Shown piece by piece: positions 9,990 to 60,917 of a DNA stretch of 64,000 nucleotides; position 1 is the first letter of the stretch, and the number at the start of each line of letters is the position of its first letter. Both the position numbers and the translations under genes were made by a program. Source of the stretch: Tulasnella sp. 424 (Eukaryota; Basidiomycota; Agaricomycetes; Cantharellales; Tulasnellaceae); the NCBI GenBank assembly GCA_019633425.1, contig WSUB01000005.1, forward strand, positions 248,001-312,000, read 5' to 3'. The notes under the pieces are model-generated. The model ran no database searches. It worked only from the letters and a program-made list of their open reading frames with translations, and was not told the origin of the DNA.

Positions 9990-12749
9990 ATGTCTCCCTC
10001 CGAAATCGTTCCCGTCATCCAGCAGAAATATGCCGAGGTAGGCGAGCATCGACTCCTATCATCTATCTATTTTTATCCTGATTCACCGCGATGCGATAGC
10101 ATTCCGCCCTCCTGGCAGAGCTGGCCGCAACAGATTATGTGTCAGTGTCTCTAAAGGTCAACGAAAAGAAAATAGAGGAGATCAAGAAAGCTCTGGAGCA
10201 GAAAAAGGAGGTAGTGAAGAACTTAGAGAAAAAGACGAAGTCAGAGTACAAGGATGTATCCGCGCTGCAAAGGAGCGGGACCAAACGACTCCTTCTTCGC
10301 CTGAAAGTCGGATCTGACGGTAGGCGATTTTGTTCCAAAGGTGATAATTTTGTGCATCTAATCAACGTATGCTTTCGAATCCTCAAGGTGCTCAAAAGGC
10401 CATAGCGAAGGAAGAAAAGGAGTATATGGATGCCTTCCAAGCTGAAAATAACGAGAAGCTCGCCATTTCGACATTGGAGGCTGAACTCAATAATGCTCAG
10501 CTGTCTGTATGTTAAACTCTTCTCATGCACCTAGCTTGCCTAGTCGAACACTTCTTCCACAGAACATCGATCTCAAGTCGAAAGTCGATCGTTACGAAAA
10601 AGCGCGGAAGCGAATGGATGAACTTTACCTCGAGTTATTCGAGGGTCACACCAATGGTAGGGCTCTGAAGCCTGTGTTATTCAACCACCCTCTCATCGTG
10701 GGCACTCTATTATGGATAGACTACCCTGAAGAAGATGAAGCGGAACAAGCGGTTAAGCTGTCCCAGGCCAGCCATGCCAAAGACCAGGAGCGATTGACAA
10801 AGGTATCACAAGTCTACTCTTGGTTGCACAAGGCGGAGAAGTCTATGCAGACAGTTTTGGAACGATTGAATAAGGTATGTAGAATCCCGGCTAGGAGAAC
10901 GTGAACGATCCTGAGGTGCGAACGATCTCAGGCAGAAGAGGTGGCGTTGAAGGAACTCACCACTCAAAATTACAATATATACGAAATGAAGGAGCTGAAG
11001 TCGGCCAAGAAATACGCACTCGAGGTTGAGACCTTCATGGCAGAGGCTCGCAAACTTGATAATCGTATACCTGATCTCGGCCAGATCAGCATTCCCTTCC
11101 AGTGAGGTCTTTGTCACGTGCACAGCAGGCTTCTACTCATACACCATTGCTTCTCAGGGATGCTGGGTATCAACCGCCGTTTGGATCTGAGAGAGGGGTG
11201 AGTTTTTGATGGAATCTCTCTGACAAACACTAATCACAGGCGCTTCAAGGATCTCATCATCCACCGCTTGATCAGCGATGCGAGCAAAGACTGCATCCGA
11301 TACCATACCAAGTTGGAGACTGAAGAAAGCAAGGTTAAAGCTCAAGTGAAGGAAGTCACCAAGGTCGCTGTGGAGAGCGGAACCGTGCTTGCGAAGAAAC
11401 GAGCCGACCTCGAGGCGATTCGTCGTAAAATCATCGAGAACGTGCACAAAGGCATTCTTCCTGAGAAAGGTCCATGGGTACCGACTCAAGGCATTCCTGA
11501 CAATGAAGGCCCAAATCCAGGCGGGTTTACAGGTCCAGCCTTCCCATCCATCGGCTTCCCGTTTACTGGTAGCCCTACCACGAGCTTACCAGCAGGAGGC
11601 TTCCGTTCCGCTCACGGTTCCATTGAGATTGCCTCTCCGGAGGGCGGTGTTGATGCCCCAGGCTTCCCTATCAGCCCCGCATTTCAGCATCCAGTGGACC
11701 GTATACCACCGACGGAGCCTGGCTTCCGACGAACTGCAGAAATGAACGTCATCGCCTCTATTGCAGCATTCTCTGTCCCTGCGGCCACTCCTTGGGCAAT
11801 TAATCGCGAAGCCGCCGCAATGCTACTCAACGCTGCCCAAGAGCCGATAAACGGTGATGATACCGATTTCAAAATGCCCCAAGCACCGGGTTCCCCCCAA
11901 CTGCCCGGAGGAAACATTGCCATTCCGCCCACTCCCAGTGGTCCCGGCTTCCCCTCTTCACCAGCTGAAGCAGCCTTCTCGGCGTATCAAACCAAACCAG
12001 CCGAGGAGGTCGCCTACGACGGGTCCCCTATCAAGCTATTCAAGTTCGACTCCACTGCAAACCCTGCCAAGTGGGATGACCTTGGCCATGGTCGTCTGCG
12101 TATGGTCACCGAGAAAGAAAGCAAAACGGTCCGCTTGGTCGTTTCCTCGGCGCAAGCGACGAAGCCTCTCCTCGACCGTCCCATAAGGAGTGGTGCCCGC
12201 CTTCTTCCGCATCCGAGCTCCGACAGGAGTTTCATGTGGACTTTGGAAACAGAGCCCAAGGGACCCTTCGCTATCCGCATGTCAAGTCCAGAGGCAGCTC
12301 GGGAGGTTTACAACGCGTTTGAGCGGGTCCAAAAGATCTTCCCTCGGCCTACCCCAACTTCATCAGATGACGCGTGGCCATCAATGCCGCTAGCACCAGG
12401 GGATGCGCCCCCATCAATTCCCGCTGGACCCACTGCTATGCCCACGGCCGGAGCTTCGTCCCCATCTCCTCCCTCTATGCCTTCAGCCTCCGGGGTTACG
12501 ACCACTGGCAATGCTCCCAGCGGTACAGCTCCAGCAATGCCATCTACCCCCGGAGACACCCGTTCCTCTGCTCCTGTGGCTTGGCCTCAAAGCCCAGAAG
12601 ACCAGCCCCTTGCCATGCCAGGGGGGATGCCGACATCTCCCGCAGACGTGAAGAAGGCTGCCAGCACCTCAACAGGTGGAGTGACCTCAGGCGTTGCTGC
12701 GCTGAACTTGGGGAAAAGTCAGGCCCCATCTAATGGTGGAAAAAAGTAG
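9990..12749 (+). CDS. Long coiled-coil protein with C-terminal RanBP1-type (Ran-binding/PH-like) domain, 772 aa
   Basis: Eight exons: 9990..10037, 10100..10319, 10388..10506, 10563..10656, 10720..10874, 10932..11064, 11158..11197, 11240..12749. Phases are consistent and total 773 codons. The 63-base intron at 10657 is in frame and could be retained, and the 11065 donor was chosen because it alone keeps the frame. Residues about 20-345 are charged coiled coil (KVNEKKIEEIKKALEQKK). A Pro/Gly-rich linker follows. Residues about 534-636 match a Ran-binding domain: IKLFKFD, KWDDLGHGRLRM, VRLVVS, SDRSFMW and a final helix AAREVYNAFERVQ. A Pro/Ser-rich tail ends the protein. Ran-binding domains bind Ran-GTP, so a nuclear-transport or spindle link is inferred. 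I do not recognise the whole architecture. Confidence 0.72.
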
Positions 12750-12950: not shown

Positions 12951-13776
12951 ATGGCTACTGCTGGCCGTAAAATGCTATCAACAGTTCATAAAGGACTTGC
13001 TTTCGAACAACGCGCTCTATCTTTCCTCCAGAACAATTTGTCCATGTCGCTAACATCAGTGGCAGGACGCGGTGATGGCGGAATTGATCTCCAAGGTTGG
13101 TGGTGGCTGCCGCAGCTTACTCCCCTAGGAGGCCCCAACGCGGTGGGTACAAAACGTAGAGGCGGAGGAAAACCCGATTCTGCTTCACTCGTGGGTACGG
13201 CGGATCTTTTGCGCCGAAAAGTACGCGTTATTGCGCAGTGCAAGGCGGAGAGTCGAAAGGTGAAGCGCGTCTTGAGCGATCAATCGTGACGCGGCTGAAC
13301 TTACATTTGGGTTTTCTGTATTTTAGCTTGGTCCAAAGCACGTTCGAGAACTTGAGGGAGTTGCGTCGCGGCTTCAGATCCATTCCCTAAACACCACGTC
13401 TCTTGGGGAACCCCTCACTCCCACTGTCGCAATTCTAATATCGGAGTCGATCTTTACCAAAGCTTCCACTCTTCATGCGATGTCATCGCCAATACCTTTC
13501 CTCCTGCTACATCTTCCTCCACTACCTTACCCAGCTCCTTCCGACAAAAAACGTGCTGCAAAACAGCAAACGGTTGACGATTCGTGTTTGATCGGATCAG
13601 CGGTGGCAAATCATGCATTACTCGGCACCTCCAATGGGGTTGACGTCCTCGGGCTATCTGGACGGTTGGAAATCCGGTGGGAAAGGCTTGCCAGGCCCAA
13701 CGCGGGCGGAGAGCGGGGCAGGTTGGGATTATGGTGGGATAAGGAGCGATTAACTCACTGGATACCTTCTGTTTGA
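12951..13776 (+). CDS. RRG7: RRG7-like mitochondrial protein with restriction-endonuclease-like fold, 252 aa
   Basis: Exons 12951..13259 and 13327..13776, intron 67 bases (GTGAAG...TTTAG), phase 0. The ATG at 12951 is the first in frame; upstream codons in this frame lack an ATG. The diagnostic block is HKGLAFEQRALSFLQNN followed by AGRGDGGIDLQGWWWLP. Then come VRVIAQCKAES (the Q-x-K element of the nuclease-like core), HVRELEG, and a C-terminal GLWWDKERLTHW. This pattern fits the RRG7 (DUF2034) family, named from yeast 'required for respiratory growth 7' and predicted mitochondrial; its biochemical role is not known to me. It lies 201 bases after the coiled-coil gene, on the same strand. Confidence 0.75.
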
Positions 13777-29230: not shown

Positions 29231-31951
29231 TTACAATGCCTCCAGCTGTCGCCGAACCTCCTCCGCCCGCTCGTCGAAGCTTTGCAGCTCCCGTTCACCG
29301 TCAGCTTTTAGATGTTCGTACGCCTCCTGCATCTGTTTGCGGACGTATTCGATTAAGGTCATTTTCCTCTCTTCCGCAGTAAACGTGACTTCGGGAGGAG
29401 GGGGAGCGAGTTCGGGTGAAGCCATCCGAACGTCTGGTTTGTCCTGGACAGCTGGTTTCGGGGTCGTCTGTTGTTGGGCATTTGATAAAGCATTGGCCTT
29501 AGGGGTCCGCTGCGGGCTCTTGGCTCTTTCGAGAGGAATGATGCCATTAACCTTGCCCTTGACAGGAGCGATGGCAGAAGCTTGGATAGCACCAGTAGCT
29601 TTATTAATGGCACCACTGTCCACTAGGGGCAGATTAGGTCGGTCCTCCTCCATCAGCCCTGGCTCCTCGACCTCTGACTGCTCGGTGGGCACGGAGGCCT
29701 CGGTACCAGAAAGATCCTCCGCTTCAGTCCCTGGCTCACTGTCCGGTTCCGGCTCCGGCTCGGTGACCTGATTTGACGTAGATTCCACGATATCGTCAAC
29801 CTCCATTTCGTTGGCTTCTGGAGAGGGAGGTTCAGGTTCGGGAGTTTTGGCTTTCTTTGTAGCCTTCTTGCTCTTCGCAGTATTCTTGCCTCCCTTCTTG
29901 GGTTTTGCTTTAGGTGGGGCAACTTCCTCCGGTTCGGGTTCCGCCTCCACTTCTGGCTCAGGTGTCGCGATAGTCGGGAAGGGAACTTTGTTCATCTCTT
30001 TCGACTTCGCTGACGCTGACGGTTTCTCCAAAGATTCGATCTTGCGCGATGGAACAACGACCTCCGGTGGACTGGCTTTCTTCCCCGGTTTTGGTTTCGA
30101 CGGAGGTTCCGGAGCTGGGGGCGGTAAGGCATCGAAGTCGTCTTCAACGACGGGTTCAGCTTTCTTGGTCGCCTTCTTAGCATTCGTCTTGGTTTTCTTT
30201 GGAGGCTTAGCTACCGGCTCAGGCTCGGGCTCCTCCATTTCCTCATCTTCTTCCGGAGAGGGTGGGCGAGGCGCCTGCTTCTTGCGGCTGACCTTCGCGC
30301 CATTCACCTCGACAGCACTGTCTGGGGCCTGACCAGTGGGATGCCGAGAGCCTTTCACAGCTCCACCAGACGCTTTCTGAACGGACTGTGACCGATTGCT
30401 AGCACCACGTGAAGGTCCAGCGGCATTTTCGTCCTCTTCAGGTTGTGGTCGGCTTGCGTCGCGAGATGGCGCCTGTCGCTGGATTTGGCCCTGCGGCTGG
30501 GTCCGACTGCGTCCATGGCCACTAGTTTTGGGCGGGGGTGCGGGAGCAGCTTCGAAATCCGACGCTTCCATAGGTTCGTCCTCTTCTTCCTCCTTCACTT
30601 CGGGCGGTGTTGGCACCGCTGCTACTTTCTTCGATCTTGTAGACTTTGCGAGTGGATTCGCGCTCGGCACCACACTTGATTTCCCTCGCGTGGCTTTCTT
30701 TGTTGGTTTAGGAGGAGGTGGGGGGATAACCTCGGATTCCGCTTCGGGTTCGGAAGCCTCGTCGATGACGTTTGGCTTCGCGGTAGAAGCAGCTCGAGTA
30801 AGTCTGAGGGCAAAAGGGTCAGTATATCTGGTGGCTTCCATGACCACAAAACCAACAAACAAACCTCTTTCCCTTCGTCGACGTCCCTGTTTCAGCATTC
30901 GGTTGTCTTGACGCAGTGGCAGGAGCGCGTTGGCTTTGGTTTAGGGCAGCAGACGAGGGCTTTCGACTAGAGCCCTTTTGTGTCGAGGCTTTGCGCGATG
31001 TTGTAGTTGGGGCGACGGGTGTCAGGAAGTCCACCTCGTCTGGTCCATCCATCGTTTCATTTGGGTCGAACACCTTTCCGGTGAATATAGGACAGTTCGG
31101 ACGTTTCTTTTGATGTAGGGCACTGAGGAAGGAAATTCAAAATGAAGTCTAGACCCCTTAAAACCAGGCCACGTACAGCGGGACATCATCCATCTCCCAG
31201 TCCGCGAATGCGGTTTGGCAGTATGGGCAAGTCGCCATATCAGGGCTTGAAGCCGTTGGAGTATAAACAAATCCGGCCTCGGCTACCTATCATAAAAGTT
31301 TGTAAGCAACAGTAATGAGTAGGCGAGCGCATAGACCAACTTTCTTGGATGTAATGCCATGTTTGCTGCCAGCTTGGTCGTGCGGCCAGTATGTCCCGAA
31401 AGTTCCGCGACGCGCTCTCTCTAAAGCGCGTGCTGTCGGCAGTCGATCCGAGGACATGAACCGCCATCTAAGAGAGAACAGAATCGCGTGATGCGCTTGC
31501 TTAGCGTCCAAGGATTGTTCCGGCGCGTCCGGCAAGGGTGGCCTGAAGGCTGTGTGTCAACTCACGTATCCTTCCCGACTCTCTCACTCTGGATGGAGCA
31601 GACCGCTAAGGCCCACGAGCACTTCGTCTGCTTAACCCTCTTCGCATGCTCATAATGTGGATCATCCTGTTCCTCCCAACCGCCGAGAGTATGCCCGCAC
31701 ATGAAGCATTCGACTTCGTCCACGATCCCGCTGGCATTTGGGTCATTTCGGTCGGGGTAGAAGAACCCAGCTTGGGCTAATGTTGAAGGGTTGGCCTTGA
31801 ATGTTGATGGGTGAGGCCACGCATCTGGTGGAGGAGGTGCTGCTTTGGCTTTCTTGCCGCGGGACTTAGCTGGGGCTGGCTGGATCGGCTGGGGAGGGTT
31901 GAAGGACGTGACGCGTGCCTCCACCACGTACATAGGCGGATGTGACGCCAT
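29231..31951 (-). CDS. BIR1: Bir1 / survivin-like chromosomal passenger complex protein with two BIR domains (817 aa)
   Basis: Exons 31951..31566, 31467..31341, 31286..31177, 31122..30865, 30803..29231; total 818 codons. BIR1 lies at about residues 45-118 with zinc ligands C82, C85, H102 and C111 (spacing C-x2-C-x16-H-x8-C). BIR2 lies at about 145-222 with C191, C194, H211 and C218 (C-x2-C-x16-H-x6-C). A long low-complexity middle is rich in acidic, Pro and Lys runs. The C-terminus is a helix (TLIEYVRKQMQEAYEHLKAD) like the part of Bir1/survivin that packs with INCENP and borealin. The known family role is to recruit Aurora B to centromeres and the spindle midzone. Donor GTTGGT of intron 2 is weak but keeps the BIR frame. 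Confidence 0.9.
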
Positions 31952-32727: not shown

Positions 32728-33631
32728 TCAAAGCTTGGCATACGCGTAGTTTCCTCCCTTTTCGAGTGCCCGCTTATACGCAGGTCTGCAAGTCACAAAA
32801 CTCAGCACGGTGTCTTAATGATTTGGTGGAAGACGCTTACCGGTCGTGAATCATCTTCACATACGCATTGAAACTCTCTGGAACTGGTTTTGGGCTGCGT
32901 GAGGCGAACACCTCCATTGGGAAGAGCATCATGAAGTCTGCAGCTGTGGGTTCGCTCCCTCCCGCAAACCAGCCGCCCGGGTTCTTCTTGAGCTGCTCTT
33001 CAATCTGGGAGTTCCGTCAACGTAAATCTTCAATGCATGAGGTTATGGATCGAATATGAAATTGATCGCTCACCAGGCCGATGTTCTCCACAAGGCGGTT
33101 ATCGATCATTCGTGCGATGAGAGCGTTGCATATTCCCCTAGCAATAGGACGAACGATGAAAGGAGCGTTGTCTGGAGTCTTTGTGAGAATGAGCTTCCAA
33201 ACGACTGCAAGCTTGTCAGCCTGGCAGGTGTAAAGTGAAAAGCTACCAGCTTACAGAGAGGCATCAAGGTTCCTTCCGCATAATGTGAGACTGATAAAAA
33301 GGAGCGGAACAGCTTCAGTTTCGATGTTTATATTGATATGGGACGACTCACAGTAAATGTTGTCCAACCACCCGCTCTCTGGCGGTTGAAGCTTTCCCTT
33401 TGCATGTTTTGCTAGAATATACTCGACGATAGCCCCAGACTCCGCAACAGTTAGGTCACCATCCGTGATGACGGGCGACTTGCCGAGAGGATGAACCTTG
33501 AAGAATTCGGGAGGAGCGAGCATGTTCACCCGTTCATAGCGCTTCACTTCGTATGGAACTTCGAGTTCTTCCAGGAGCCAAAGAATTCGTTGAGCTCGAG
33601 AGTTGGCGAGGTAGTGCACGGTGATTGTCAT
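32728..33631 (-). CDS. Glutathione S-transferase, GTT1-like (222 aa), copy 1
   Basis: Exons 33631..33352, 33290..33255, 33204..33074, 33004..32841, 32785..32728; total 223 codons. The N-terminal thioredoxin fold starts TITVHYLANSRAQRILWLLE, with the SRA motif (S11) at the position of the catalytic residue in this class. KSPVITDGDLTVAESGAIVEY is the glutathione-binding cis-Pro/E-S element. The C-terminal helical domain includes SHYAEGTLMPL and AADFMMLFPMEVF. GTT1-type enzymes conjugate glutathione to electrophiles and reduce peroxides at membranes. The tandem copy at 34575..35504 has the same exon sizes after exon 1. Confidence 0.88.
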
Positions 33632-34574: not shown

Positions 34575-35504
34575 TCAAAGCTCGGCATACGCGTAGCTTC
34601 CCCCCTTTTCAAGTGCTCGCTTATACGCGGGCCTGACGAGCTAAATCTCAGCGCGGAATCCATGGTTGATTGTGAGATGCTTACCGATCGTGAATCGTCC
34701 TTACATACGCATGGAAACTCTCTGGGACAGGTTTAGGGCTGCGTGAGGAGAACACCTCCATCGGGAAGAGCATCATGAAGTCCGCGGTTGTGGGTTCGCT
34801 CCCGCCCGCAAGCCAGCCGCCCGGGTGCTTCTTAAGTTGCTCTTCAATCTAGGAGCCAAGTAAACGTGATCAGTGCATGAAGTCATGGATCGAATAGGAA
34901 ATCGATGGCTCACTAGGCCGATGTTCTCGACGAGTCGGTTATCGACCACTTGTGCAATGAGACCGTCGCATACTTTTGTACCAATAGGTCGGGCGACTAA
35001 AGGAACGTGGTCCGGCGTCTTTGTGAGGATGAGCTTCCAAACAACTGCAAAGCTCATCAGCCTGGCAGTCGTAAATTTGGAAGGCTAGCGGCTTACGGAG
35101 CGGCATCAAGGTTCCATCGGCATAATGTGAGACTGATAAAGTGGGACGGAATGGTTTCAGTTGGGATCTGGGGTTCTGGTACCTACATTGATTTAGGGCG
35201 ACTCACAGTACATGTTGTCCATCCAGCCGCTCTCTGGCGGTTGAAGCTTTCCCTTTGCATATTTTGCCATAACATACTCGACGATAGCCCCAGACTCCGC
35301 AACCGTCAAATCACCATCCGTGATGACGGGCGACTTGCCAAGAGGATGAACGTTGTAGAACTCCGGGGGTGCGAGCATGTTTACCCGTTCATAGCGCTTC
35401 ACTTCGTATGGAATTTCGAGTTCTTCCAAGAGCCAAAGAATTCGTTGAGCTCGAGAGTCGGCAAGGTAGTGTACGGTGATTGTCGTGTTTTTAGACTGTG
35501 ACAT
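34575..35504 (-). CDS. Glutathione S-transferase, GTT1-like (228 aa), copy 2
   Basis: Exons 35504..35207, 35132..35097, 35044..34914, 34848..34685, 34632..34575. Exons 2-5 are 36, 131, 164 and 58 bases, exactly as in copy 1; exon 1 is 18 bases longer and gives the N-terminus MSQSKNTTITVHYLAD. The SRA motif is at S17. A few substitutions separate the copies (for example SYAYAEL versus NYAYAKL at the end). Both look functional. It is divergent from RSM22, 877 bases away. Confidence 0.88.
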
Positions 35505-36381
35505 GCCTTGTAGGTGGTGGTGTTGAACTTGGGTGAGGAAAGTCTCAGCGGAGCGGCTCGTGCATTTGTATGGATGGTGGATCGGTGAGGTTACCCGACC
35601 TGTTGCCTCTTCGGGAAATGAATCGGCCGCCGACTTCCAAGCTCGCCGAGTCGCCCCGCAATTGACCCACCTCATAAAAGGCTACGGCGGATAGAAGCTT
35701 TAATGTGAGGTCATACCCATGCCGGGTAGGAGCAAGAGCATCGTCGAGTGGGCGCTCCGGATCCGGGATGAAGCCAGCTCCGAAAGTCCTCTCAGCTGGT
35801 CGGCTATAATGGGATGAGGATGACGCCTATCTCCCATGTCTGACTTCATGCATTCTCCGAGGGAGCCGCACCTGTTGGCCGATAATTCAGATCTCTGAGC
35901 CAATTATCCTCCCAACCCTCTCGAAGAAAGGTGTAATGCCTCGAAACCCGAGGTTGATACAGCAGCACCTATTGACATCTGCCATTACCGAAACGGAAAC
36001 AAGTTCGACCAACCGATAGTATAGAGCAGTGCCAATGATGGATATCACAACTCACGATCCGAGGTATCACTTTGCCGACAAACCGGTCGGGGGAGGTGGC
36101 CGAGGAGGCGGGTACCTCGACCGATCGCAGCTAGCAAAGAGCCTAGAAGCTAAAACTAGGCATATAGCGCTTAATTTTTATATAATTCATCGGTGACTGA
36201 GCCCGAGGCAACGTTGGTTGATCTCGGGTAAGTCGCATGTAGAGGCCTTTGATCATTGGCGAGAGTGGGATTGGTCGGAGACATTTTTGCGCGTTGCACT
36301 TGGACCCTGATACTCCTCACCGCGGGAGTGTCTACTCTCAGCCAAAATTGCGATCATTGCCCACCATTCATTCGCGTCCAG
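35505..36381. promoter_or_regulatory. Divergent GST2 / RSM22 promoter region
   Basis: 877 bases between the starts of GST2 (minus) and RSM22 (plus). It is the second copy of the duplicated GST upstream region described at 33632..34574. No specific binding sites are claimed. Confidence 0.4.
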
Positions 36382-41504: not shown

Positions 41505-43340
41505 ATGTCAACAGATTCTTCCGACGACCCAGGGCCGAGCGGCCCTTTTACTACTCTAGAAAGATTAATGGGGGATGAAAACGCCAAACGGTGAGTCTAT
41601 AAGCAGATGTTCCGGAGTCGGTTGCTCAAAAAGGAACCCGTTATTAGAGCTACTTTTCTCTTGACTATGCCTGAATACAACCAGAACATTCGAACCTCAG
41701 GAATCGTTATTTCTCAACTCACTTCCGCTCTACGCAAAGCCCAGCAATTCCAGGCTCGGCAAGCGCGCGCTCGAAACGCGCTTCTTCCAATCCACACCCT
41801 CCCACGTGAGCTCCTCTCACAAATATGGACCGACATCACCTACAGCTCCGCCATCAACGGTCAAGACGGCGTCTGGGCTCTGGCGCAGGTCTCGACATTG
41901 TGGGCCGATCTACTCTTCGTTTCCTCCGAGACGTGGTGCGCCATCAGCAGCGCGTTCCCTTTGAAAAGGACCCGGTTGGCGCTGAAGAAGTCTGCAAACA
42001 GACCTCTTCACGTCTTTCTGGGGATGGAACCCGACGTAGTGGAGACTTTTGATACAGTCCTGCCGCAATGCCATCGTTGGCGCGAATTACGGATCGTTGC
42101 GGGGCTTCCGGAGATCACTCTTACATTGCAAGTGACATCCTTGCCAATGTTAGACTCGTTGCACGTCCTACCGCACTACGACATTGACAATATCGCACAA
42201 GCTCCCAACCTGCTCGACTCCCCCGGGCTTCGCTCCCTTTTCCTTGAGTCTGTCCCACTTGATTGGCCCTCACCATCGGCGGCACCAGCGGGACTGCGCT
42301 CGCTCTCTCTCTATCATATCAGAAACGGACCCACGTTCTCCCAACTCTTTGCCATATTGTCGACAATGCATCTACTGGAACAGCTGCAGTTGGTGGCAAT
42401 AGGACCTCCAGCGGGAGATGAGCCTTTGAGTTCAAGCGAAGAGCGAAAATCCTTAGTGATGCCCCACCTTCGCAAACTCTGGGTTTGGTATATAGAGCAA
42501 ACATTAATACCCCTATTACTGTCCTGCATACGGGCCGACAGTTGCCGCTCTGTCATCGCTGCTCCTTTCGACCTCGACCTCACCTCCTCCCAAAACTTAG
42601 CAGGCCTCCGCTCTCTTTTATCCCCGATCGCTTCTTCCGCAGAGAAGCTCTTCCTTACTACTGGCGATAGTGGTGGACACGGGTATGCAACACTCTCCAC
42701 GTTTGACGAACCCAACATGTTCGAACACCGACAAGAGGCGGGCCGGGACACAAGCGGATTCACCATCGGATTTTTAGTTGGCCGAAACTCCGAACACCTC
42801 CAAATCGTCGTATCATTTCTCGCTTATACGGCGATTCCGATATCCCTGTCAGTTCGATGCTCGGAACTTCAAACACAGAGCGCTATCGCTCAGTTAGACT
42901 GGGACCAGTTACCTTCTATCCGTGAGCCCATCATACACGGTCCCTTGGAACCCTCTCCTATTTTATTAAGCCTATGTAAAGCTCGAGGACCCCGGCACTC
43001 ACCTCGCTGGCCTTGCCCACAGTTAACCGTTCTCAGAATTCCGGGACTGGATTGGGTGCCATTTGGGTTCGAGTTTATCCTCAAGCAGAGGTGGGGAGCT
43101 CCAGAGGCCGATGGACTTAAGAGAGACACCTCTCGACCAGCGAGACTATCGCTGTGTCAAGTCCCCAGAGAACGGTTATCAAAACTACTTTCACCCGAAG
43201 ATATGGCCCATTTCGCTGACGTATGGGAGGAATCTGCCCCAGTTCCGCAAATCCGCGGAGCCCGAGGTCAAGTGATTAGGAAAACGGTAAAGAGGCAGCG
43301 GAAGCAATCAAGTATCATCAAATGGTCGTTAAAAGTGTGA
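41505..43340 (+). CDS. F-box protein (592 aa), duplicate 1
   Basis: Exons 41505..41590 and 41648..43340; 57-base intron GTGAGT...TTAG, phase 2. The N-terminus MSTDSSDDPGPSGPFTTLER is acidic. The F-box lies at about residues 75-130 (LLPIHTLPRELLSQIWTDI, VWALAQVSTLWADLLF, ETWCAI). LRR-like repeats run to about 540. The closest relative is the gene at 44256 (most residues identical). Its last 27 residues (VIRKTVKRQRKQ) are basic and come from sequence that lies beyond the stop codon in the sister gene, so the tail is probably a recent extension. Confidence 0.82.
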
Positions 43341-44255: not shown

Positions 44256-46005
44256 ATGTCAACAGATCCTTCCGACGAACCAGAGCCGAGCGGCTCCTTT
44301 ATAACTCTAGAAAGATTAATTGCAGATGAAAACGCAGAAAGGTGAGCCTATAAGCGGATGCTTCTGTATAAGGAGTCTGTTGCTCAACAGGGAATCCGTT
44401 GTTAGAGCCACTTTGCCCCTTACTATGCCAGAATATAACCAAAACATTCGGACCTCAGGGAACGTTATCTCCCAACCCACTTCTGCTCTACGCAAAGCCC
44501 AGAAATTCCAGGCTCGGCAAGCGCGCGCTCGAAACGCGCTTCTTCCAATCCATACCCTCCCACGCGAGCTCCTCTCACAAATATGGACCGACATCACCTA
44601 CAACGCCGCCATCATCGGTGAAGACGGGGTATGGACTTTGGCACAGGTGTCGGCATTATGGGCCGATATCCTTTTCAGGTCCTCCGAGATGTGGTGCGAA
44701 ATCAGCAGCGCTTTCTCCCAGAAAAGAACGCAGTGGGCACTGAAGAAATCGGCAGAAAGACCTCTTCACGTCTTTCTAGGGATGGAGCACAATGTAGCGG
44801 AGACCTTCAATACAGTCCTACCACACTGCCATCGTTGGCGCGAATTGCGAATCGCAGCGGGGCTTCCGGAGATCACTCTCGCGTTGCAAGTGACATCCTT
44901 GCCGATGTTAGATTCGTTGCAAATCATACCGCGATACGACATTGGAGAAATCGCCCAACCTCTCAACCTGCTCGCCTCCCCTGGTCTTCGCACCCTTTCC
45001 CTCCGGTCTGTCCCACTTGATTGGCCCTCACCGTCGGCGGTTCCAACAGGACTTCGTTCGCTCGATATCCATAATATAAAAAACGGACCCACGTTCTCCC
45101 AGCTCTTCGCCATATTGTCGTCGATGCAGCTATTGGAGGAGTTGCAGTTGTATGAAGTAGGACCTCCAGCAGGAGATCAGCCCTCGACAAGCGGCGAGCA
45201 GAGACCCCTGATAATGCCCCACCTTCGCAAACTCTGGATTTTCCAGATAGAGCAGACGTTCATCCCTCTATTAATGTCCTGCATTCGGGCTCAAAATTGC
45301 CGTTCTGTCATCGTCCTCACCTCTCCCCAAAACGTTAACGCTACAAAACGCCTCCGTTCTCTCCTAACCCCAATCGCTTCATCCACTAAAGAGCTCTTCC
45401 TGGCTATTGGCGATTTTGCTGCATGTGGGTACGCAACACTTTCCACCTCTGCCACACCCAACATGTTCGAACACTCGCAGGGGACGGGAGCAAGCGAATT
45501 CAGCATCGGTTTTTTGGTTGGCCGAAACTCCGAATACCTCCAAGTCGTTGTAGAATTTCTTGCCTATACGGCCATCCCGATGTCGTTGTTAGTTCGATGC
45601 ACGGAACTTCGGACCCAGAGCGCGATCACTCAGTTGGACTGGGACCAGCTACCTTCTCTTCGTGAGCTCATAATAACCGTCCCCTTCGAACCCTCTCCTC
45701 TTCTATCAAGCCTCTGTAAACCTCGAGGACCCCGACATTCGCCTCGCTGGCCTTGCCCAAAGTTAACGGTTCTCAGGCTTCCAGGACTGCAATACGTGCC
45801 GCTTGGATTCGGTGCTTTCCTCCAGCAGAGGTGGGGACCTCCAGAGAAGGATGGGCTTCAGAGGGATTCCTCTCGACCGGCGAGGCTATCGCTGTGTCAG
45901 GCGCCCAAAGGACGGTTATCCAAACTACTTTCACCCGAAGCCATGGACCACTTCGCTGACGTATGGGAGGAATCCGCGCCAGCTCCGCAACCGGGCCAGA
46001 GGTGA
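44256..46005 (+). CDS. F-box protein (561 aa), duplicate 2
   Basis: Exons 44256..44341 and 44406..46005; 64-base intron GTGAGC...TTAG, phase 2. N-terminus MSTDPSDEPEPSGSFITLER. F-box LLPIHTLPRELLSQIWTDI, then VWTLAQVSALWADILF. Near-duplicate of 41505..43340, with several short in-frame deletions in the middle (for example around SVIVLTSPQNV). Ends soon after HFADVWEESAPAPQ. Both copies are open, so both may be functional. Confidence 0.82.
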
Positions 46006-52446: not shown

Positions 52447-52800
52447 TTAAACTGACGAAGTAGCAGCTTCAGGCTCGTCAAGGTCAGCAAGAACCTTTTG
52501 AGCGACTCCTTCTTTGGCTTCTGACTTGGTGTTTGATGGCCCATGTTTGTATTCTTTGCCGCCGACTGTGTTTAAGGCATCAAAGAAACCCATTCCCAAA
52601 TAAACAAGGAGCCGATGTTTAAAAAGAAAAATGCCTTGCGTACCATTGACGGTGGCGATCCAACCTTCGTTTGCCCTCTCGTTGTTAACCTTGACGGTGT
52701 TGGTTGAGACGAGCTTTCGTTTGGCGAACGCGTTATACATATGCATCCAGAAGTGGTTCTGGCCGTCTGGAGCTCCGAATACTGAGTGATTGTCGGACAT
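52447..52800 (-). CDS. dsRBD-fold mini-protein A (91 aa)
   Basis: Exons 52800..52644 and 52565..52447; intron 78 bases (GTACGC...CACAG), phase 1. The unspliced frame is also open, but only splicing gives the fold. First helix HFWMHMYNAFAKRK, strands STNTVKVNN and NEGWIATVN, then YKHGPSNTKSEAKEGVAQK and VLADL as the last strand and helix. That order, and AK at the start of helix 2 where dsRNA-binding domains contact the RNA backbone, fit a single dsRBD. No other domain is present. A short acidic tail ends TSSV. The call comes from pattern; binding of dsRNA is inferred and not shown. It shares gene structure with the four genes that follow. Confidence 0.65.
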   Translation of the reverse strand: MSDNHSVFGAPDGQNHFWMHMYNAFAKRKLVSTNTVKVNNERANEGWIATVNGTQGIFLFKHRLLVYLGMGFFDALNTVGGKEYKHGPSNTKSEAKEGVAQKVLADLDEPEAATSSV

Positions 52801-54534
52801 GATGGATATAAGGGAGGAGAAAAGGCGATACAGAGTGAGGGTTCTGAGATGGCTGAGGGATCGGAGTGCGTTGACAATGCTCTTTGCTGAAAGGACTGGC
52901 TGGGAGCTTTAAATACATCTTACACAGTCTGCGGTGAAGGACTTAGGTGGTCTGATCTTGCGAGTGGTGCTCAGTGCCGCCGGTGCAAGTTGGGGCTTGG
53001 AAGGCGGGACAGCGCCTCTCGAACGACCCATTAGTGGAAACTCGAAAAGAAAAGATGGTTTGTAAGCCTTATGTGGCGCCGGAAACCTTTGTTTTATTCT
53101 TGTAACGGTGTTAGGCGGTGGTTGACGGAAGTCGAGGCACCTAATTTCGGGGAGAGGAGGAGGGAAAATACCTTGCTGCGCCGATCCTATCCGACGCGTG
53201 CAAATTCGGCGGTACTTCCACCTCACATAGGCGCCTTATTCGAACTAACCTTTTATTCTAAGCTCAGTTGTGTCCTCCACCAACAATGGTGCGTTGATTC
53301 CCCGGGGGAGGAGAGACACTCCTCAAAAAGTATTAAATTGACATACAGAGCCCCCCCACAGCGCCAGACGACAAGCACAGAAAGACGATTGCCCTGGGAG
53401 GAACTAGTTTGACGAGATGAAGGACCAAAAGGTGGTTCGAGCGGCAAGCTAGCCTGGTTGGCCTTGCCCACCTTGTCCTTTGACAGCGCCTCTGAGATAC
53501 AGGAGGAGATCCCGACCCTGTGATTCTGTTTAAGACCGAGAATGACGTAGATCGGCACGCTAGGACTCATTATGGATGGCTTCTCAGCACGAAGATCTTG
53601 AATGAGGTCATCAGACTTACCAGCCAAAGTGAACCAGAACGTTCGCGCATCTGCACAGGAACCTTCTCTACACGCAGTGCAATAGATTGCTGATCAATCC
53701 AAAGATGCGATCGGGCGAACACGCTGTGCTTCTCTCGAAGTGGTTTGGCCCGTCCGATGCCGACGTGGGATTTTCCAACACTTGTCCAATGGCAAGAGGC
53801 TACGAGAAATTTCGAGCAGGAGCACGACCCTTCTATGGTACGAGACATAGAAACAAAAAACATAAATTCGGGGTAACAATAACGAGTTTGGTGACTTATG
53901 GGAGGTGTCTCGTTCGGAGAACCTGGTATCCATTTCGAGAAAAGAGGCAGGTGCGTCACGTTGGCGCGAGGAACAAGTGAACCCCCCCCCCCCCCCAACG
54001 GGCGGTGTCCTAGAGAGACTCCGAGTCCGACGCAATCAAAATAAAGTGTAATCACAGTGATTCGATGCAGTGCAGAGCTGTTATTAGCTTCGATGACGAT
54101 TCCTGATCGTGAAGCGCTCGCTGTGCGAGGAATTTAAGGCGCCAACGCGTCGTTGAGTACCTCGGCTAGATAGTGGGGCGAACGGAGCCTTTGTCCACGG
54201 TTTAACTGGAAATACACCACAGGGGTTGATACCACAGATTAGAAGAGCTTAGAACAGCCCAAGCTCTTCTTCGGTGACTGCGGCGCTAACGTTGGTGGTG
54301 GGCTACCGATCGCTGTATTGACGACCGACCTCGCTTTGCAATCTCACGGTCGCTAAGAAAGGCACAGACTGTGAATCCTTTCAAAAGTCTACACCAGTAG
54401 AAGGCCAACAGTCCGACGCAATGAGCGACATTTACATTCCATCCAGTGGACAAGCTACAACCGATCGATCGGAAGGAACACGTCCAGTGGAAGCGAGCGA
54501 CCTGCTAATTATCACACACGTAGTCAAATCCTTA
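52801..54534. other. Intergenic with possible dsRBD relic
   Basis: The minus strand near 53450-53640 has fragments resembling the end of a dsRBD mini-gene (KVGKANQASLPLEPPFG beside a GTAAGT), but no full model can be built. Otherwise nothing is seen apart from the C-tract listed separately. Confidence 0.3.
53982..53996 (+). repeat. Poly-C tract of 15 bases
   Basis: An unbroken run of 15 C between GAA and AACGGGCGG. On the minus strand this is a G15 run, able in principle to form a quadruplex or to slip in length. Confidence 0.9.
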
Positions 54535-54869
54535 TCAAGCCAGATTCTGAGCATCTGGGTCCAGGCCGAGAGCTCTGAAGGCTTGGACGGCTACGTCGTT
54601 CTTGGCTTGCGGTTTTCTGGTGCAGGGCTTCGAGCGAAAGGGTCCAAACGTGTCCTGCTCGCGAGTGACTGGCATTTATTTGAGTATGATAAACGCTGAA
54701 TAAAGCGTATTCGCCGAGCGAGAAACTTACAGGTAAGTACGGACACCCAGAGTCCCTGCTGATTTGGACCTTCCGTGTTTTCATTATACCTGATGTTTAA
54801 GTCTGGACGTTGGGTGTAATTGTGGAACCGCATCCAATAGTGATTTTCGGTAGGCTGGGGAGTGGTCAT
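54535..54869 (-). CDS. dsRBD-fold mini-protein B (90 aa)
   Basis: Exons 54869..54731 and 54668..54535; intron 62 bases (GTAAGT...TGCCAG), phase 1. Helix 1 is HYWMRFHNYTQR, followed by strand LNIRYNEN and GLWVSVLTF, then DTFGPFRSKPCT and helix 2 PQAKNDVAVQAFRALGLD. The intron falls between the second strand and the third, as in A, C, D and E. Exon 1 is 139 bases, the same as in C. Sequence identity to A is low away from the aromatic and AK positions, so the paralogues are old. Confidence 0.65.
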
Positions 54870-57173
54870 AGAGCTTATATGATGAGAGAATTAGCGAAGA
54901 TGAGCAGTGTCGAAGGGAGGATGGGGTTGAGGTTGAGGTTGACGGACCAAACGATTCCGAGCTCGTTTTATAGACACTCTGGCCTACATATGTAGACCAT
55001 AAAAGCCCAATTCGTATGTATAAAGGTTTTCTAGAGATTTCATTCCTTGGCGGCGCGGCTCGCAGCTTTGCTGTACGTCGTACACTGGTCACTTGCGCCA
55101 AGCCCACTCCCACCGGAGGAAAGCGCTCATTATAATACGCCCAAAATGGCTCCAGAATGAAAAGGATAAAGGCGCTTCAGCACATATAAGGCATTTGCGA
55201 GGCCAATGATCTTGGAATATTGTTGAACTTTGAGTCTCGAAGTTCTCTTGAAGAGTTTTAGGGTTTGAAGGATACGGCTCGGAGGATGCTACCTCTCAAA
55301 ATGGGGACATAAGGCGCTTCAATCCATTGAAACTGACCTTCCTTGGCATCGTATGGCGCTTGAACGCACGCAGCAGCTTTAATTCCCTCCGGACAAGGCT
55401 TGTCTCACGGCTATACTTTGGACGGTTCGCCTACCTGCCTGGAGAGTATCAGAATCATGGAGAGTAAAGGCAGGTATCATAAGTCGTATTGACCTCCTTG
55501 GCACCAGAACTGCAGCAAACATTTAAGATGGGTCCTTGGTCGGGACTCTTGGGGATCACCGGAGCTAAGCCAACGTTAACGCTGGACGTTCTACAATATA
55601 ACCAATAAACTCACCTCTCACTATCTGTCTTGATCATCCTCGCTAGTGACAAGTGAAGGTATTCGGGTAAGCCCTCCCATCAAGCCTTGTTACCCTGACT
55701 TGTCGAACACTCGTCGTATCGAATCTTTACTAGCGAGATTAAACACGCTAAATCTTTTCCTCACCAAAGACAGCTTGGCCGAATGGAGACAGTGCGCACA
55801 TTCATCGGAGATCACAATGATGATGCCGACACTGCAGCGCTTACAAGTACAACCGTCCGAAGCGAGGTGAGGAACTGAGCAACAAAGCTAGATTCGGTGA
55901 GCCCCAAAGTTTGAAATAATCCTCTAATAGAATTCCCTCCGTTGCTTGATGGATGCGAGATGGGTGGAACAACAGATTGAGCTAGGTGGTGAAAGCGTCA
56001 TCGATCGCAAGAGCATGTTCACTCAATCGAGCCACTTTGCCTCCGTCCGAGTAACGCAGCACCATTCCTCATTCGGAAGGCTGGAGAAGGGCACGCTGCA
56101 CTGCCGCACGTGGGATGACCGTGGAGCCAAGGACCGTCAGCGCTTAAGGGTGACCTCAGACCGACTAGCTTCAACTGAGGGTTGAAAAGGTTGCAGACAA
56201 TGGAGGTAATCAAGGGATTTATGACCAATCGAATAATTAGGGTGATGGTCAGAGGGTCGAACGACGCCCAATGAAGGACTAGTCGAGTTGCGATCTTACT
56301 AGGCGCCAGCGAGCCTCAAGAATGGCTAACTGGTAGGTCACGTCGAAGCTTGATGCATCAGCGGTAGCTTTGGGTGAAAGCCTCGAGGGACTGAGGACCA
56401 AGATACGAGGGTTCGACAGGCTGAGGAGAACACAGGTCGACGATAGCTCGTAGTCGGAAGTTCCGAATTTTGTTTATGCACTTCGTGAGACAAACTCGAC
56501 CAAGCTTGTTCGGAGGTTTCTTCGCCTCCCCCTGGTACGAAGCACTGAATAATGGTGGGCGAAACCAAAAGGAAAAAAGGACGTGAGTCATGACTACTAC
56601 AGTTCAGCTGGGCTCAGTTATCCCACCTGGTTGCGCGTACATGGAAGGAGAGCTTGCATGCACGAGTAGAACCGTAGTTTATTGGGTTCCCGCGGCCGAC
56701 TCGGGTGTTGGGGCGATATTTACTACTGAAGTTGAGCCTTTAGCAACTTTAACCAGTAAGCTCGACTGTCTCCAGCTCAACATAGAAACTTCCGCTCGAC
56801 TTGGGGGTTTATGAGCACTTCACTTGTCTTCTCACCTCAATGCCTGTGGCAAGGCAATATACAGCAATGCTCTTACATTTCCCTTACCTGAATTGGGCGT
56901 CTCCGGAGTCCTGGTCTGAATTGCTATCGAACACTTCCTGATACTTCCCAAGCAGCCGAAAGTGCACCGTTAAAAGTTGCAACTGACCTCTTCAGGAGGG
57001 TGAGCTCTTGCCAAAAAGGTATCCTAGTGCATAAATTCATGTCGAACGATACCAAGATGTTGAGGACGTATAAAGAGAGACGTCTTGATGCCTTAACATT
57101 ATTCAACAGCGGGCTACTAATTCACGATCGCTCCTCTATCTTCTTCCATCCTTACCTGTGTACTTTTATCTTC
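54870..57173. other. 2.3 kb without a supported gene
   Basis: Short ORFs only (for example 55646..55870 and 56590..56814 plus strand); none shows a recognisable domain or splice-supported extension. Confidence 0.35.
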
Positions 57174-57514
57174 ATGGAGGCTCAAGCACCCATTATTGAG
57201 CAGCCCTGGCATGAATTTGTCAAGGTCGCTGAAGCCAGGAAGGTTCTACACTCGGCCGCCCTGACGGCCCAAAACACAAAGGCCAACGAGAACTGGGTTG
57301 CCAACCTTACTGGCAAGTGGTGTATATCAACCCCGGGAGTAATTTATTTACATTTTATTACTCGTGATGACTCTTAGTTACCATAGGTGGCGAAGAAAAA
57401 CACTTCATCTCTGGGGTTCACAGAACCAAAATGGGGGCTAAGAATGAGGCAGGCAGCCTCGCGTTAGTCGGAGCTTTTGGCTATCAAAGAGAGCAATTCC
57501 CAGACTTAGAGTAG
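57174..57514 (+). CDS. dsRBD-fold mini-protein C (88 aa), GC-AG intron
   Basis: Exons 57174..57312 and 57387..57514. The intron starts GCAAGT and ends CCATAG (74 bases), phase 1. The GC donor is needed: the nearby GT (GTGTAT) leads to a stop. Helix 1 is QPWHEFVKVAEARKV, strand ALTAQNT, NENWVANLTGG, then KHFISGVHRTKMGAKNEA and LALVGAFG as helix 2. It is the only family member on the plus strand. Ends FPDLE. Confidence 0.62.
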
Positions 57515-58703
57515 ATGCCGTTTCGCGTGTTTCTCGCTCGAGGCAGCGAAGAGTGGGGCTATTGTCGCTATACCTGTGTCTATTCCGTCTGTTCGAGGAA
57601 CGAAATACACACACGTTAATTGATATACACACGGATGGTACGGTTATAAAATACATAGCTCGTAAACCTCGAGTATCTTCTTTATAGGTGGGTCTGTTGG
57701 CGCCTTATTGGTATACGGAGCTCCTCTCACATCAGAGCCATAAGCTCCGGTTCTACAAGCGATATACTGGTCGAATGTTCTCTGAGAACAAAAAGGTGCT
57801 GCATAACTTAAACTAGTTTTCATGGGTAGCGGAGCATGATACGTTGTAGAGGGACGCGATGCTCTCTCAGCGGATGCACCTGGTCTGAGAGTCAGCGACC
57901 AGGCTTATGTCAGGGACTTTTCCAGGTGTTCAAGAAATAAGGAGGAGGAGAGGTTTTTTCGAAGAAGATTGATCCCAGGTTGCACGAGCAGAGAGCGGCC
58001 GGAACATCGAGGAGGGTCTGGGAAATGGTTCGGAGAGGAACAGCGATGACCGGTGGGAAGATCGCAGACCTCCCAAATTCGATTCCTAATCGCCCGCTCC
58101 CTCATCAAGATGCTCACAGTCAATAGGTCAAACATAGCTGTGGCGATGCTAAGTCCCAGCGCTCAGAAGGGCTACCCAGGTCAACGGCGCCCAGGAGTTC
58201 ACCCAACGTGGAAATACCCTATGGAGCAACACCCAGTCGCATGGGCGCTTAAGGCTCACTCCGCTTTTTTTAGAAAGCAATCATCACTTTGATAATGTCT
58301 CTAAGGTGAGTTCGTATCGAGGATTACGTTCACATGTATGCGTTCCATCGTCGTAATAACCGCCAGAGCAGCTGCAAGCAAGCTGAAGTTTAAATCGCGC
58401 ACTCGCTATCGTCTTCCACAGCTTTACGGTGCGGATACATGGGTGGATAGAAGGCTCCAATCTGAGGAGTCTTATTTCCCGGGATGCATATGACGGACAA
58501 TACTATGGTCCCAGACAATCACTGGCGGGGAAGAAGTTCGTTTCGGAATAGCAAAGGATGTACTTTAATATTTTAAATTCTATTAGAGAAGCTGCGAGTC
58601 GAAAGTAGACTGAAACAAATCTAGTGGGTGCTGGTATAACTCCGTCACCGACAAGTGGCGCCTTTTGTTGAATGGTAACGGTATCGCTGAGCTACTCTAA
58701 GGC
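57515..58703. other. 1.2 kb intergenic, no gene seen
   Basis: Nothing recognisable on either strand apart from short, composition-neutral ORFs. Confidence 0.3.
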
Positions 58704-59021
58704 CTAGATGCTCGAGACATCAAACCCCAGGGCCAGCAGAGCATAGTACGCCACTTCATTTTTAGCATAAATTTTCCTTATATGAGAGCTCTGGGTTTTG
58801 AATGTCCTTGAGGATGTACCACGAGTAACTCGGGATCGTTAAATGTAAGTCAAAGGTTCCAGAACAAGTCAAAGGTTTCGCTTACTGGTCATCTCCGCCT
58901 CCCACCCTTCATTAGCAGCTGGGTTGGCCGCATTTGCGGTAATTGTATAGGTATAGTCTGTTTGCCCGAAGTTATTGTGAAAAGCTTGAAAATAGCCCTT
59001 CGAAAAGTCTGGAGTAGACAT
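58704..59021 (-). CDS. dsRBD-fold mini-protein D (86 aa)
   Basis: Exons 59021..58886 and 58828..58704; intron 57 bases (GTAAGC...CCCGAG), phase 1. Helix 1 GYFQAFHNNFGQ, strand YTYTITANAA, NEGWEAEMT, then TFKTQSSHIRKIYAKNEV and AYYALLALGFD as helix 2. NEGW in strand 2 is shared with A, and AKNE with C. The stop follows VSSI. Confidence 0.65.
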
Positions 59022-60485
59022 GTGTAGGCAGATGGGACGTGGATTTCAGCGGAACTAAGGTGAAGGATGGGGTTATGCTTTAGAAAGAAAGCTAAGTGAT
59101 TTAATGTCTCTTTATACCTGCTCAGCTCATTGCGTCTTCCCTTGAGGCGCTTGTAATCTCATAACTCCTTTGTTCGCGGAGAGATATGTAGATTTCAGCG
59201 GCTAGAGACTTCGCGGTGAGCCTAGATGACATACGTGGGCATTTCAGCGTTTGAATTATCCACGTAAGACGCACATAGAACGTGTAGTAAGCTAGAACAT
59301 TCAAGCCGCGAGCTGAGGATCGAGAGTCATACAAGATGGGCTTGGCGCGAGCCCACTGCTAACAGGTGGTAAGATGACAAACGCGAGGTTTCATTCCATA
59401 AAATTCTTTGGAAGTTCGGTGCTCTATGAAGTTGGTATGAAACTAGTGACTCTGATGGTCGGAACCACGTAGCCTGACCCTGCTGATTGCATTGAGATTA
59501 GGCGGTAGTGAGTCTAGAGGCCCACCTAATGTTGCTATCGAGTTCGAACGCTGCCGATATGCAAGTTACATATTTTTATGCTCTAAACCTCTTTGTAATT
59601 CGATCCCATATGGAGGAAATCTGACCTACGGCGCTTCGGAGTGCGGCATTTTCTGTCAGGATGGATATCCACTGGACAGGAAGAGGAATCCAGTGGCGAC
59701 GTGATTTCGTATTTCGACTATTCCGTCTTGGCTTGACCCCCAAAAAGGGAAAGTTGGATAGACAGAATTTCAGTTAACTAGAAATTGGTTAAGCGACCTT
59801 TTCCATAAGTTGCCCGTTGCACCCCAAACCGAACACTACGTGCTGGGTCGACTTGTCGTTTGATTTTTCAGCCGCTCGAAGATGCAGCGGTGCACTGCGA
59901 CTGACTCAGCAGGAGGGGTTCTACGGAAACGGGCATTCGTGATGTAGCTCGAACTCCGTCCAAAGCAAGCCGCAGCAGGAACAAAATGCAGCCAGATTAG
60001 AACATAGTCGTCGTGCGGCGAGGAGAGTCCGAAATAGAAATAGCATTAACCATCGGGGGAGATTTGCAGCTCCCTCGTCTCGAGCGGGCATGTGGAAGCA
60101 CGGCTGGTACTGGAGGGAAGCTTGAGGTTGAAGAAAAGCGGCACCCTGTGCCGTGGGAGAGATGGTAAATTTCGCTCTCCGCTCTAAAGGCAAATTCAAC
60201 CAAACGCCACTAACCGTCACCTCCGGAATGTGCAGGAGATCATGAAAAGTACTCAGGTAATGCATAGAATCAAGTTCCCCAAGGCAAGAATGATTGAAAC
60301 AGTTATATTAAAGTAAGGTAAGGGGCTGTAAATAACGACGCATGCTACGGTCGTGACAAAAGCTGAAGCAAGAACGCAATATCGGAGCGAAAGTTACAGC
60401 GAACGAAAAATAATATACACAGAGAACCGGGGGCTACGATGATCATACGAATTCAGAGTAGTTTGTATGCCTCTATTAGGCTGGG
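59022..60485. other. 1.5 kb intergenic, no gene seen
   Basis: A minus-strand ORF from 60265 (MHYLSTFHDLLHIPEV) starts like a mini-protein but has no second half and no splice partner. The rest is blank. Confidence 0.3.
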
Positions 60486-60917
60486 CTAGCCTGACGCCTC
60501 CGTCGTGATGCCGAGTGCTCGAACTGCCTTCAGCGCGGCGGCCTCCCTGGCCTCCTTCTTGGAAAAGCCCGTACCGACCCACTCTGTAACGTTTCCTTGA
60601 TTGCCATCTAGTCATTTCAAGTCAGAAGAGCTTATCGTCAAAAGGGTGTGGGGGTGTGGGGGAGGAGGAAATTGGACTGACACATCACGGTACAGGTCCA
60701 AACACTCCGGCCGTCACGTAAGTCCTCGACTTCTGCATGCGTGGCTTGGTTTCTCATTCTTCTGGCATAGTTATGGAATCTTTGCCAGTATAACTGAGCT
60801 TTATCCTCTGTGGGTTCGGCGAATAGGTTGTGGGCTTCGGGTAATATTCCTCGTCAAACCGTATAGCACATGCTGTTCGATTTATGATGGCTCACCACTA
60901 GAAATGTTATCCAGCAT
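60486..60917 (-). CDS. dsRBD-fold mini-protein E (98 aa), best dsRBD match
   Basis: Exons 60917..60896, 60834..60682 and 60607..60486, total 99 codons. The tiny first exon (MLDNISS) is inferred because no ATG lies in the frame of exon 2. The second intron (GTCAGT...CTAG) is phase 1 at the family position. Helix 1 is YWQRFHNYARRM, strand 2 SVWTCTVMYG, and the end VGTGFSKKEAREAAALKA VRALGI carries the KK-x-A-(K/R) and AA pattern typical of RNA-binding helix 2 in dsRBDs. It is the clearest member and supports the assignment of the others. Confidence 0.62.

What the first reader, a model, noticed from the sequence alone, without database searches (positions are those of the whole stretch)
52447..60917. 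A scattered family of stand-alone dsRNA-binding-fold mini-proteins
Five small genes (A 52447, B 54535, C 57174, D 58704, E 60486) each encode 86-98 residues with the helix-strand-strand-strand-helix order of a single dsRBD. They share an aromatic-rich helix 1 (YWMRFHNY, FWMHMYNA, YFQAFHNN, YWQRFHNY), a tryptophan in strand 2 (GWIATVN, LWVSVLT, NWVANLT, GWEAEMT, VWTCTVM) and A-K/R at the start of helix 2. The family intron is phase 1 and sits between strands 2 and 3 in all five. They are the only genes I can support in about 15 kb and carry no nuclease, helicase or other domain. Proteins that are just a dsRBD could mask dsRNA, block Dicer-type enzymes or modulate virus and transposon silencing. 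The fold is inferred by pattern and the role is speculation.
Basis: partly seen in the sequence, partly recalled or inferred. Interest (0 to 1): 0.9.

Follow-up and report, generated by a model that had tools for sequence, protein, structure and literature searches.

The report
Fungal family of single dsRNA-binding-domain mini-proteins
A Tulasnella fungus carries a real, expanded family of tiny proteins that by sequence are each just one double-stranded-RNA-binding domain; the five in this window lack one of the usual RNA-gripping loops that relatives elsewhere in the genome keep, so what they bind is open.

Summary
Confirmed and extended. The five spliced genes are as described. A profile built from 14 relatives outside the window, run over 58,735 enumerated spliced ORFs in 224 kb, ranks E, B, G, A, D, C first, with phase-1 introns; G is a sixth gene just past the window end. 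A and E pass Pfam's dsrm cut-off, G barely (23.2 against 23); B, C, D do not alone, but leave-one-out profiles tie them to the family. NCBI-sourced proteins equal A and G letter for letter, from Tulasnella. At least 19 loci exist in this genome, seven in a tandem array on C128; two look broken. All named hits are Tulasnella. GPxH, a dsRNA-contact loop, is absent from A-E, G and F, present in 11 of 11 counted members on other contigs; K-x-x-A-K/R is kept. A charge difference I first saw vanished when domains were compared like for like. dsRBD homology is secure; dsRNA binding by window genes and any RNAi role are inferred. No structure was predicted: the machine was busy at all 13 tries.

The parts
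52447..52800 (-). Gene A: exons 52800-52644 and 52565-52447, 91 aa, single dsRBD; 78-nt phase-1 intron without an in-frame stop
   Evidence: Splice model; dsrm 24.8 bits (cut-off 23); identical to P0001, Tulasnella sp. 424 FRC04_008750; rank 4
54535..54869 (-). Gene B: exons 54869-54731 and 54668-54535, 90 aa
   Evidence: no dsrm match alone, Dicer_dimer E 0.053 (below cut-off); leave-one-out 43.7 bits; rank 2
57174..57514 (+). Gene C: exons 57174-57312 and 57387-57514 (an acceptor 9 nt upstream also fits), 88 aa; GC-AG intron; least secure member
   Evidence: no dsRBD-type Pfam match; leave-one-out 24.2 bits; rank 6 (19.6 bits, next non-member 16.0)
58704..59021 (-). Gene D: exons 59021-58886 and 58828-58704, 86 aa
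   Evidence: no Pfam match; leave-one-out 45.7 bits; 86-aa relative in Tulasnella sp. 417 (P0003, 59% over 83 columns); rank 5
60486..60917 (-). Gene E: exons 60917-60896, 60834-60682 and 60607-60486, 98 aa; two phase-1 introns
   Evidence: dsrm 26.8 bits (cut-off 23); 53% identical relative without the central intron on C184; rank 1 (39.5 bits)

Best explanation
A-E, with G just past the window end, are a cluster of an expanded family, so far seen in named form only in Tulasnella, of proteins that each consist of a single double-stranded-RNA-binding domain (shown by sequence homology; fold not modelled). Paralogs on other contigs keep GPxH and K-x-x-A-K/R and most likely bind dsRNA of viral, transposon or hairpin origin, sequestering it or handing it to Dicer (inferred). 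The window genes keep the domain core and the helix-2 lysine motif but lack GPxH, so they most likely touch dsRNA weakly or work through protein contact, pairing with canonical paralogs or with Dicer and tuning them (inferred; no direct evidence). Confidence by step: dsRBD homology 0.95; spliced, expressed family 0.85; canonical paralogs bind dsRNA 0.75; window members are tuners more than maskers 0.42 (lowered from 0.5); link to RNA silencing 0.4.
For: dsrm matches and PDB dsRBD matches; scan with an outside profile; leave-one-out; collection proteins identical to A and G; P0007, the NCBI model of the C128 27.2-kb gene, uses exactly my central intron. In 11 of 11 further loci fetched the best-scoring splice is phase 1, and H reads the same. 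GPxH 0 of 7 (A-E, G, F) against 11 of 11 counted members on other contigs; K at the first place of KxxA[KR] in 7 of 7 and 10 of 11. The genome has Dicer_dimer matches on two contigs and 21 Piwi-domain matches (exon pieces) on six. Two of three Tulasnella partitivirus coat proteins tested suppress silencing (PMC9098641, passages). The three RNA-contact regions are from PMC11309768 (passages).
Against: No structure model, binding data or expression data for the window genes. Charge gives no support: trimmed to the domain, A-E and G have pI 8.2-9.7 and the 11 others 8.2-10.8; the neutral pI of 6.1-7.9 came from comparing full proteins with mostly trimmed ones. An exact GPxH may not be needed: TRBP dsRBD1 departs from it (P56Q; that it still binds is recalled). 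B, C and D match no dsrm model alone, and E alone matched no dsRBD significantly in the PDB. The best tree does not join the GPxH-less genes in one clade: A-D with P0003 (77/96, weak), E with F, G with P0004; A and C have very long branches. Selection was not measurable on window genes.
Confidence: 0.5

Rival explanations
1. One reading: each mini-protein, window members included, binds and masks dsRNA and so blocks Dicer or protects transcripts.
For: dsRBD homology; K-x-x-A-K/R in all six; domains basic like the other members'; GPxH kept in relatives.
Against: GPxH absent in 6 of 6, helix-1 Glu absent in 5 of 6; dsRBDs use three contact regions.
Confidence: 0.3
2. The window cluster is decaying: old tandem copies under relaxed constraint, with no present function.
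For: Very low identity among the six and long branches. Copies do break elsewhere: C128 18.9 kb has a frame break in exon 1 and C42 a stop just before helix 1.
Against: All six window-cluster frames are open and splice-competent; D has a same-length relative in Tulasnella sp. 417; P0004 differs from G at 8 of 76 places. Purifying selection was seen only in other members.
Confidence: 0.15
3. Chance ORFs, pattern-matched noise unrelated to dsRBDs.
For: B, C and D have no dsrm match alone.
Against: identity of A and G with collection proteins.
Confidence: 0.01

Closest known systems
Pfam PF00035 dsrm (type-A dsRBD, e.g. PKR, TRBP)
   Same: Homologous over the domain; K-x-x-A-K/R in helix 2; best PDB profile matches
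   Different: No second domain; window members lack GPxH and, except C, the helix-1 Glu; an invariant Trp in strand 2
Arabidopsis DRB7.1 and DRB7.2, which with DRB4 sequester inverted-repeat dsRNA precursors processed by DCL3 (PMC8138440, passages; that DRB7.2 has a single dsRBD is recalled)
   Same: Works-like analogy: small dsRBD proteins that tune Dicer rather than cut RNA
   Different: Plant proteins; no orthology shown; here about 19 loci; no interaction data
Dicer dimerisation domain (PF03368; its dsRBD-like fold is recalled)
   Same: Sub-threshold matches of B (E 0.053) and of D's relative P0003 (E 0.039)
   Different: Below the cut-off; not attached to helicase or RNase III domains

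Membership tests
dsRBD (Pfam dsrm) | Profile match above the curated cut-off | tested here: inconclusive
   Met for A, E and barely G; not met for B, C, D singly, which belong to the same family by leave-one-out and outside-profile scan
dsRBD (Pfam dsrm) | alpha-beta-beta-beta-alpha fold | not tested
   Structure prediction answered 'busy' at all 13 attempts
type-A dsRBD | Region 2: GPxH in the beta1-beta2 loop | tested here: not met
   0 of 6 window-cluster genes, nor F; met in 11 of 11 counted members on other contigs
type-A dsRBD | Region 3: KKxAK at the start of helix 2 | tested here: inconclusive
   First K and final K/R kept in 6 of 6; second K in E only
type-A dsRBD | Region 1: Glu in helix 1 | tested here: not met
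   PKR's two Glu align with H and L of the family profile; of the six window-cluster genes only C has a Glu there
Stand-alone single dsRBD protein | No other domain; annotated as a short protein | tested here: met
   Collection models: A 91 aa, G 83 aa, C128 27.2-kb gene 85 aa, D relative 86 aa; no Pfam domain other than dsrm over its cut-off in A-E
DRB7-like Dicer regulator | Binds a dsRBD partner or blocks Dicer processing | not testable with these tools
   Needs biochemistry

The most novel reading that the evidence does not exclude
Tulasnella has evolved a variable repertoire of single-dsRBD mini-proteins, partly in tandem arrays, that works as a tuning layer on RNA silencing against dsRNA viruses and transposons: canonical members seize dsRNA, while the GPxH-less members of the window act as protein partners, possibly mimics of the Dicer dimerisation domain, that gate Dicer or the canonical members.
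Probability: 0.15. Interest if true: 0.8.

Novelty: new variant of a known kind. Interest (0 to 1): 0.5.

Why it matters
A protein that is only one dsRBD is an unusual format (recalled), and about 19 loci in one genome, some with and some without the RNA-gripping GPxH loop, are a natural experiment on what a dsRBD does when it is the whole protein. Tulasnella carries dsRNA viruses, two of three of whose tested coat proteins suppress silencing, and this genome has 21 Piwi-domain matches, so a fungal set of DRB-like silencing modulators would be directly testable. I found no paper on this family in seven full-text searches; they cover open-licence papers only, and for I saw only 20 of 126 and 10 of 602 titles.

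Tried and rejected
The single-sequence protein search with E found nothing at E 0.1, and E alone found no significant dsRBD in the PDB. PF24995 added no locus over its cut-off. Searching the genome with dsrm itself found one locus on C395, read by eye as RNase III-like; introns split the domain of the others. Weak matches on C38 (ORFs listed) and at 45390-45837 (16.0 bits) were taken as noise. The Dicer_dimer similarity of B and P0003 was kept only as a lead. The C128 18.9-kb copy was left out of the later profiles, tree, motif and selection counts (exon 1 is frame-broken; its GPRH reads in another frame) and was not mended. C42 was kept in the counts although its frame has a stop just before helix 1. 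Whether F is stand-alone could not be settled: its frame runs 179 aa with no Met, and a 205-aa joined piece had no Pfam match. My first model of H (101 aa) probably reads through an upstream phase-1 intron; without it H is 79 aa, so its N-terminus in the query, the tree and one search is doubtful. Splice choices are not all firm: for C425 a phase-2 rival scores 53.8 against 54.5, and for C335 66 kb the collection relative P0013 uses another acceptor; P0010 and P0014 carry extra residues at the junction. Reading the unnamed-source ('lgn') proteins P0004, P0008, P0009, P0011 and P0012 as spliced transcripts is an inference: P0005 and P0006 from the same source read into the intron.

Full report
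What is there. Splicing the five genes at GT-AG or GC-AG borders gives proteins of 91, 90, 88, 86 and 98 aa at the stated places, each with a phase-1 intron just behind the Trp strand. Pfam dsrm is over its cut-off of 23 bits for A (24.8) and E (26.8); B, C and D have no such match. G, below, has 23.2.

More than chance? A profile of the others finds each of A-G at 24.2-57.5 bits; none of 1000 shuffles of each reaches its score, the best being 10.9. A stricter test used a profile of 14 sequences from outside the window (11 from this genome, 3 from the protein collection) on 58,735 two-exon ORFs enumerated within set size limits in 224 kb of this contig. The six best places are E 39.5, B 34.7, G 33.1, A 25.8, D 23.2 and C 19.6 bits, all phase 1; the next is 16.0. 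C is the least secure.

Relation to dsRBDs. A profile of 13 collection proteins matches PKR (4.5e-8) and TRBP (4.7e-8) in the PDB, PKR across most of the domain. A profile of the six cluster genes plus F matches PKR (3.9e-6), TRBP and ADAR2, mostly by the C-terminal half; its 24 rows at E up to 1 also hold unrelated proteins such as flagellin and a capsid protein. E alone gave nothing significant.

A larger family. Exon profiles found G just past the window end, C394:312144-312512. Searches of the genome with A-E, F, G and H added F on C184, whose domain has no central intron, and on C128 seven places on one strand at about 18.9, 27.2, 31.0 (H), 34.0, 37.5, 41.2 and 45.0 kb, with single places on C42, C425 and C102 and two on C335 (the C335 matches are weak there, E 0.06 and 0.18, but their spliced models score 34.4 and 35.6 bits). 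That is 6 + 1 + 7 + 5 = 19, a lower bound. For 11 of 11 pieces fetched, the best-scoring splice is phase 1 (profile of A-H). Two copies look broken: C128 18.9 kb by a frame break, C42 by a stop just before helix 1. The stop in C128 37.5 kb falls in a candidate upstream intron.

Independent gene models. The collection holds A letter for letter (Tulasnella sp. 424, FRC04_008750), G letter for letter (Tulasnella sp. 425, FRC05_007424) and an 86-aa relative of D (Tulasnella sp. 417), all 'hypothetical protein'. The second profile search gave 12 proteins; the six with names are Tulasnella. P0007 is the C128 27.2-kb gene and needs exactly my central intron plus an upstream phase-1 intron. Restriction to Tulasnella holds only for a word-based search.

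Selection. Among 11 members outside the window (55 pairs), 22 pairs pass 45% identity, and pN is below pS in all 22. Synonymous distance is finite in 5: dN/dS 0.03, 0.15, 0.17, 0.22 and 0.23, two of these with dS of 1.9 or more, and one with the doubtful C42. No window gene could be tested.

RNA contacts. dsRBDs touch dsRNA by a helix-1 Glu, GPxH between beta1 and beta2, and KKxAK in helix 2 (PMC11309768, passages). GPxH is in 0 of 7 of A-E, G and F and in 11 of 11 counted members on other contigs; the K-x-x-A-K/R frame is in 7 of 7 and 10 of 11, the eleventh having Q. That the window genes lost GPxH is likely because it is the common dsRBD state, but the tree is unrooted, weak, and does not unite the GPxH-less genes. 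Charge does not separate the groups: on equal stretches, pI is 8.2-9.7 for the six cluster genes and 8.2-10.8 for the 11.

Mechanism. The genome has Dicer_dimer matches on two contigs and 21 Piwi-domain matches on six. Three partitiviruses are reported from Tulasnella; coat proteins of two suppress silencing (PMC9098641, passages). A plant analogy is DRB7.1/7.2 (PMC8138440, passages). I think canonical paralogs bind dsRNA and the window genes tune them or Dicer, but nothing here ties the family to silencing directly, and direct dsRNA binding by the window genes remains a close rival.

Limits. No structure was predicted (13 busy answers). No RNA-seq was at hand; unnamed-source proteins that run straight through the intron site (P0004, P0008, P0009, P0011, P0012) suggest spliced transcripts but do not prove them.

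Noticed in passing
G000:C128 about 18.8-45.3 kb (L040-L046): Seven-copy one-strand tandem array of the same mini-protein family with GPxH; the 18.9-kb copy is frame-broken.
   Followed up: partly
G000:C433, C21, C59, C424, C1, C223: 21 Piwi-domain matches, clustered on some contigs; 8 of 21 have stops inside, which introns could explain as well as decay.
   Followed up: no
L004 / L033 (C184:17448-17705): F, the closest relative of E, has no central intron and lies at the end of a 179-aa open frame without a Met: fusion or retrocopy unresolved.
   Followed up: partly
window 52566-52643: The intron of gene A is 78 nt with no in-frame stop, so retention would give a 117-aa protein.
   Followed up: no
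window 33254-33631 and 35196-35675, - strand: Two nearby glutathione S-transferase N-terminal ORFs.
   Followed up: no
window 31565-31951, - strand: BIR (inhibitor of apoptosis) domain ORF.
   Followed up: no
window 309-644, 11742-12746 and 12951-13286, + strand: Cytochrome b5, RanBP1 and RRG7 domain ORFs.
   Followed up: no
window 41607-43337 and 44326-46005, + strand: Two long, similar ORFs that look like F-box/leucine-rich proteins by eye; the first has no Pfam match, the second was not scanned.
   Followed up: no
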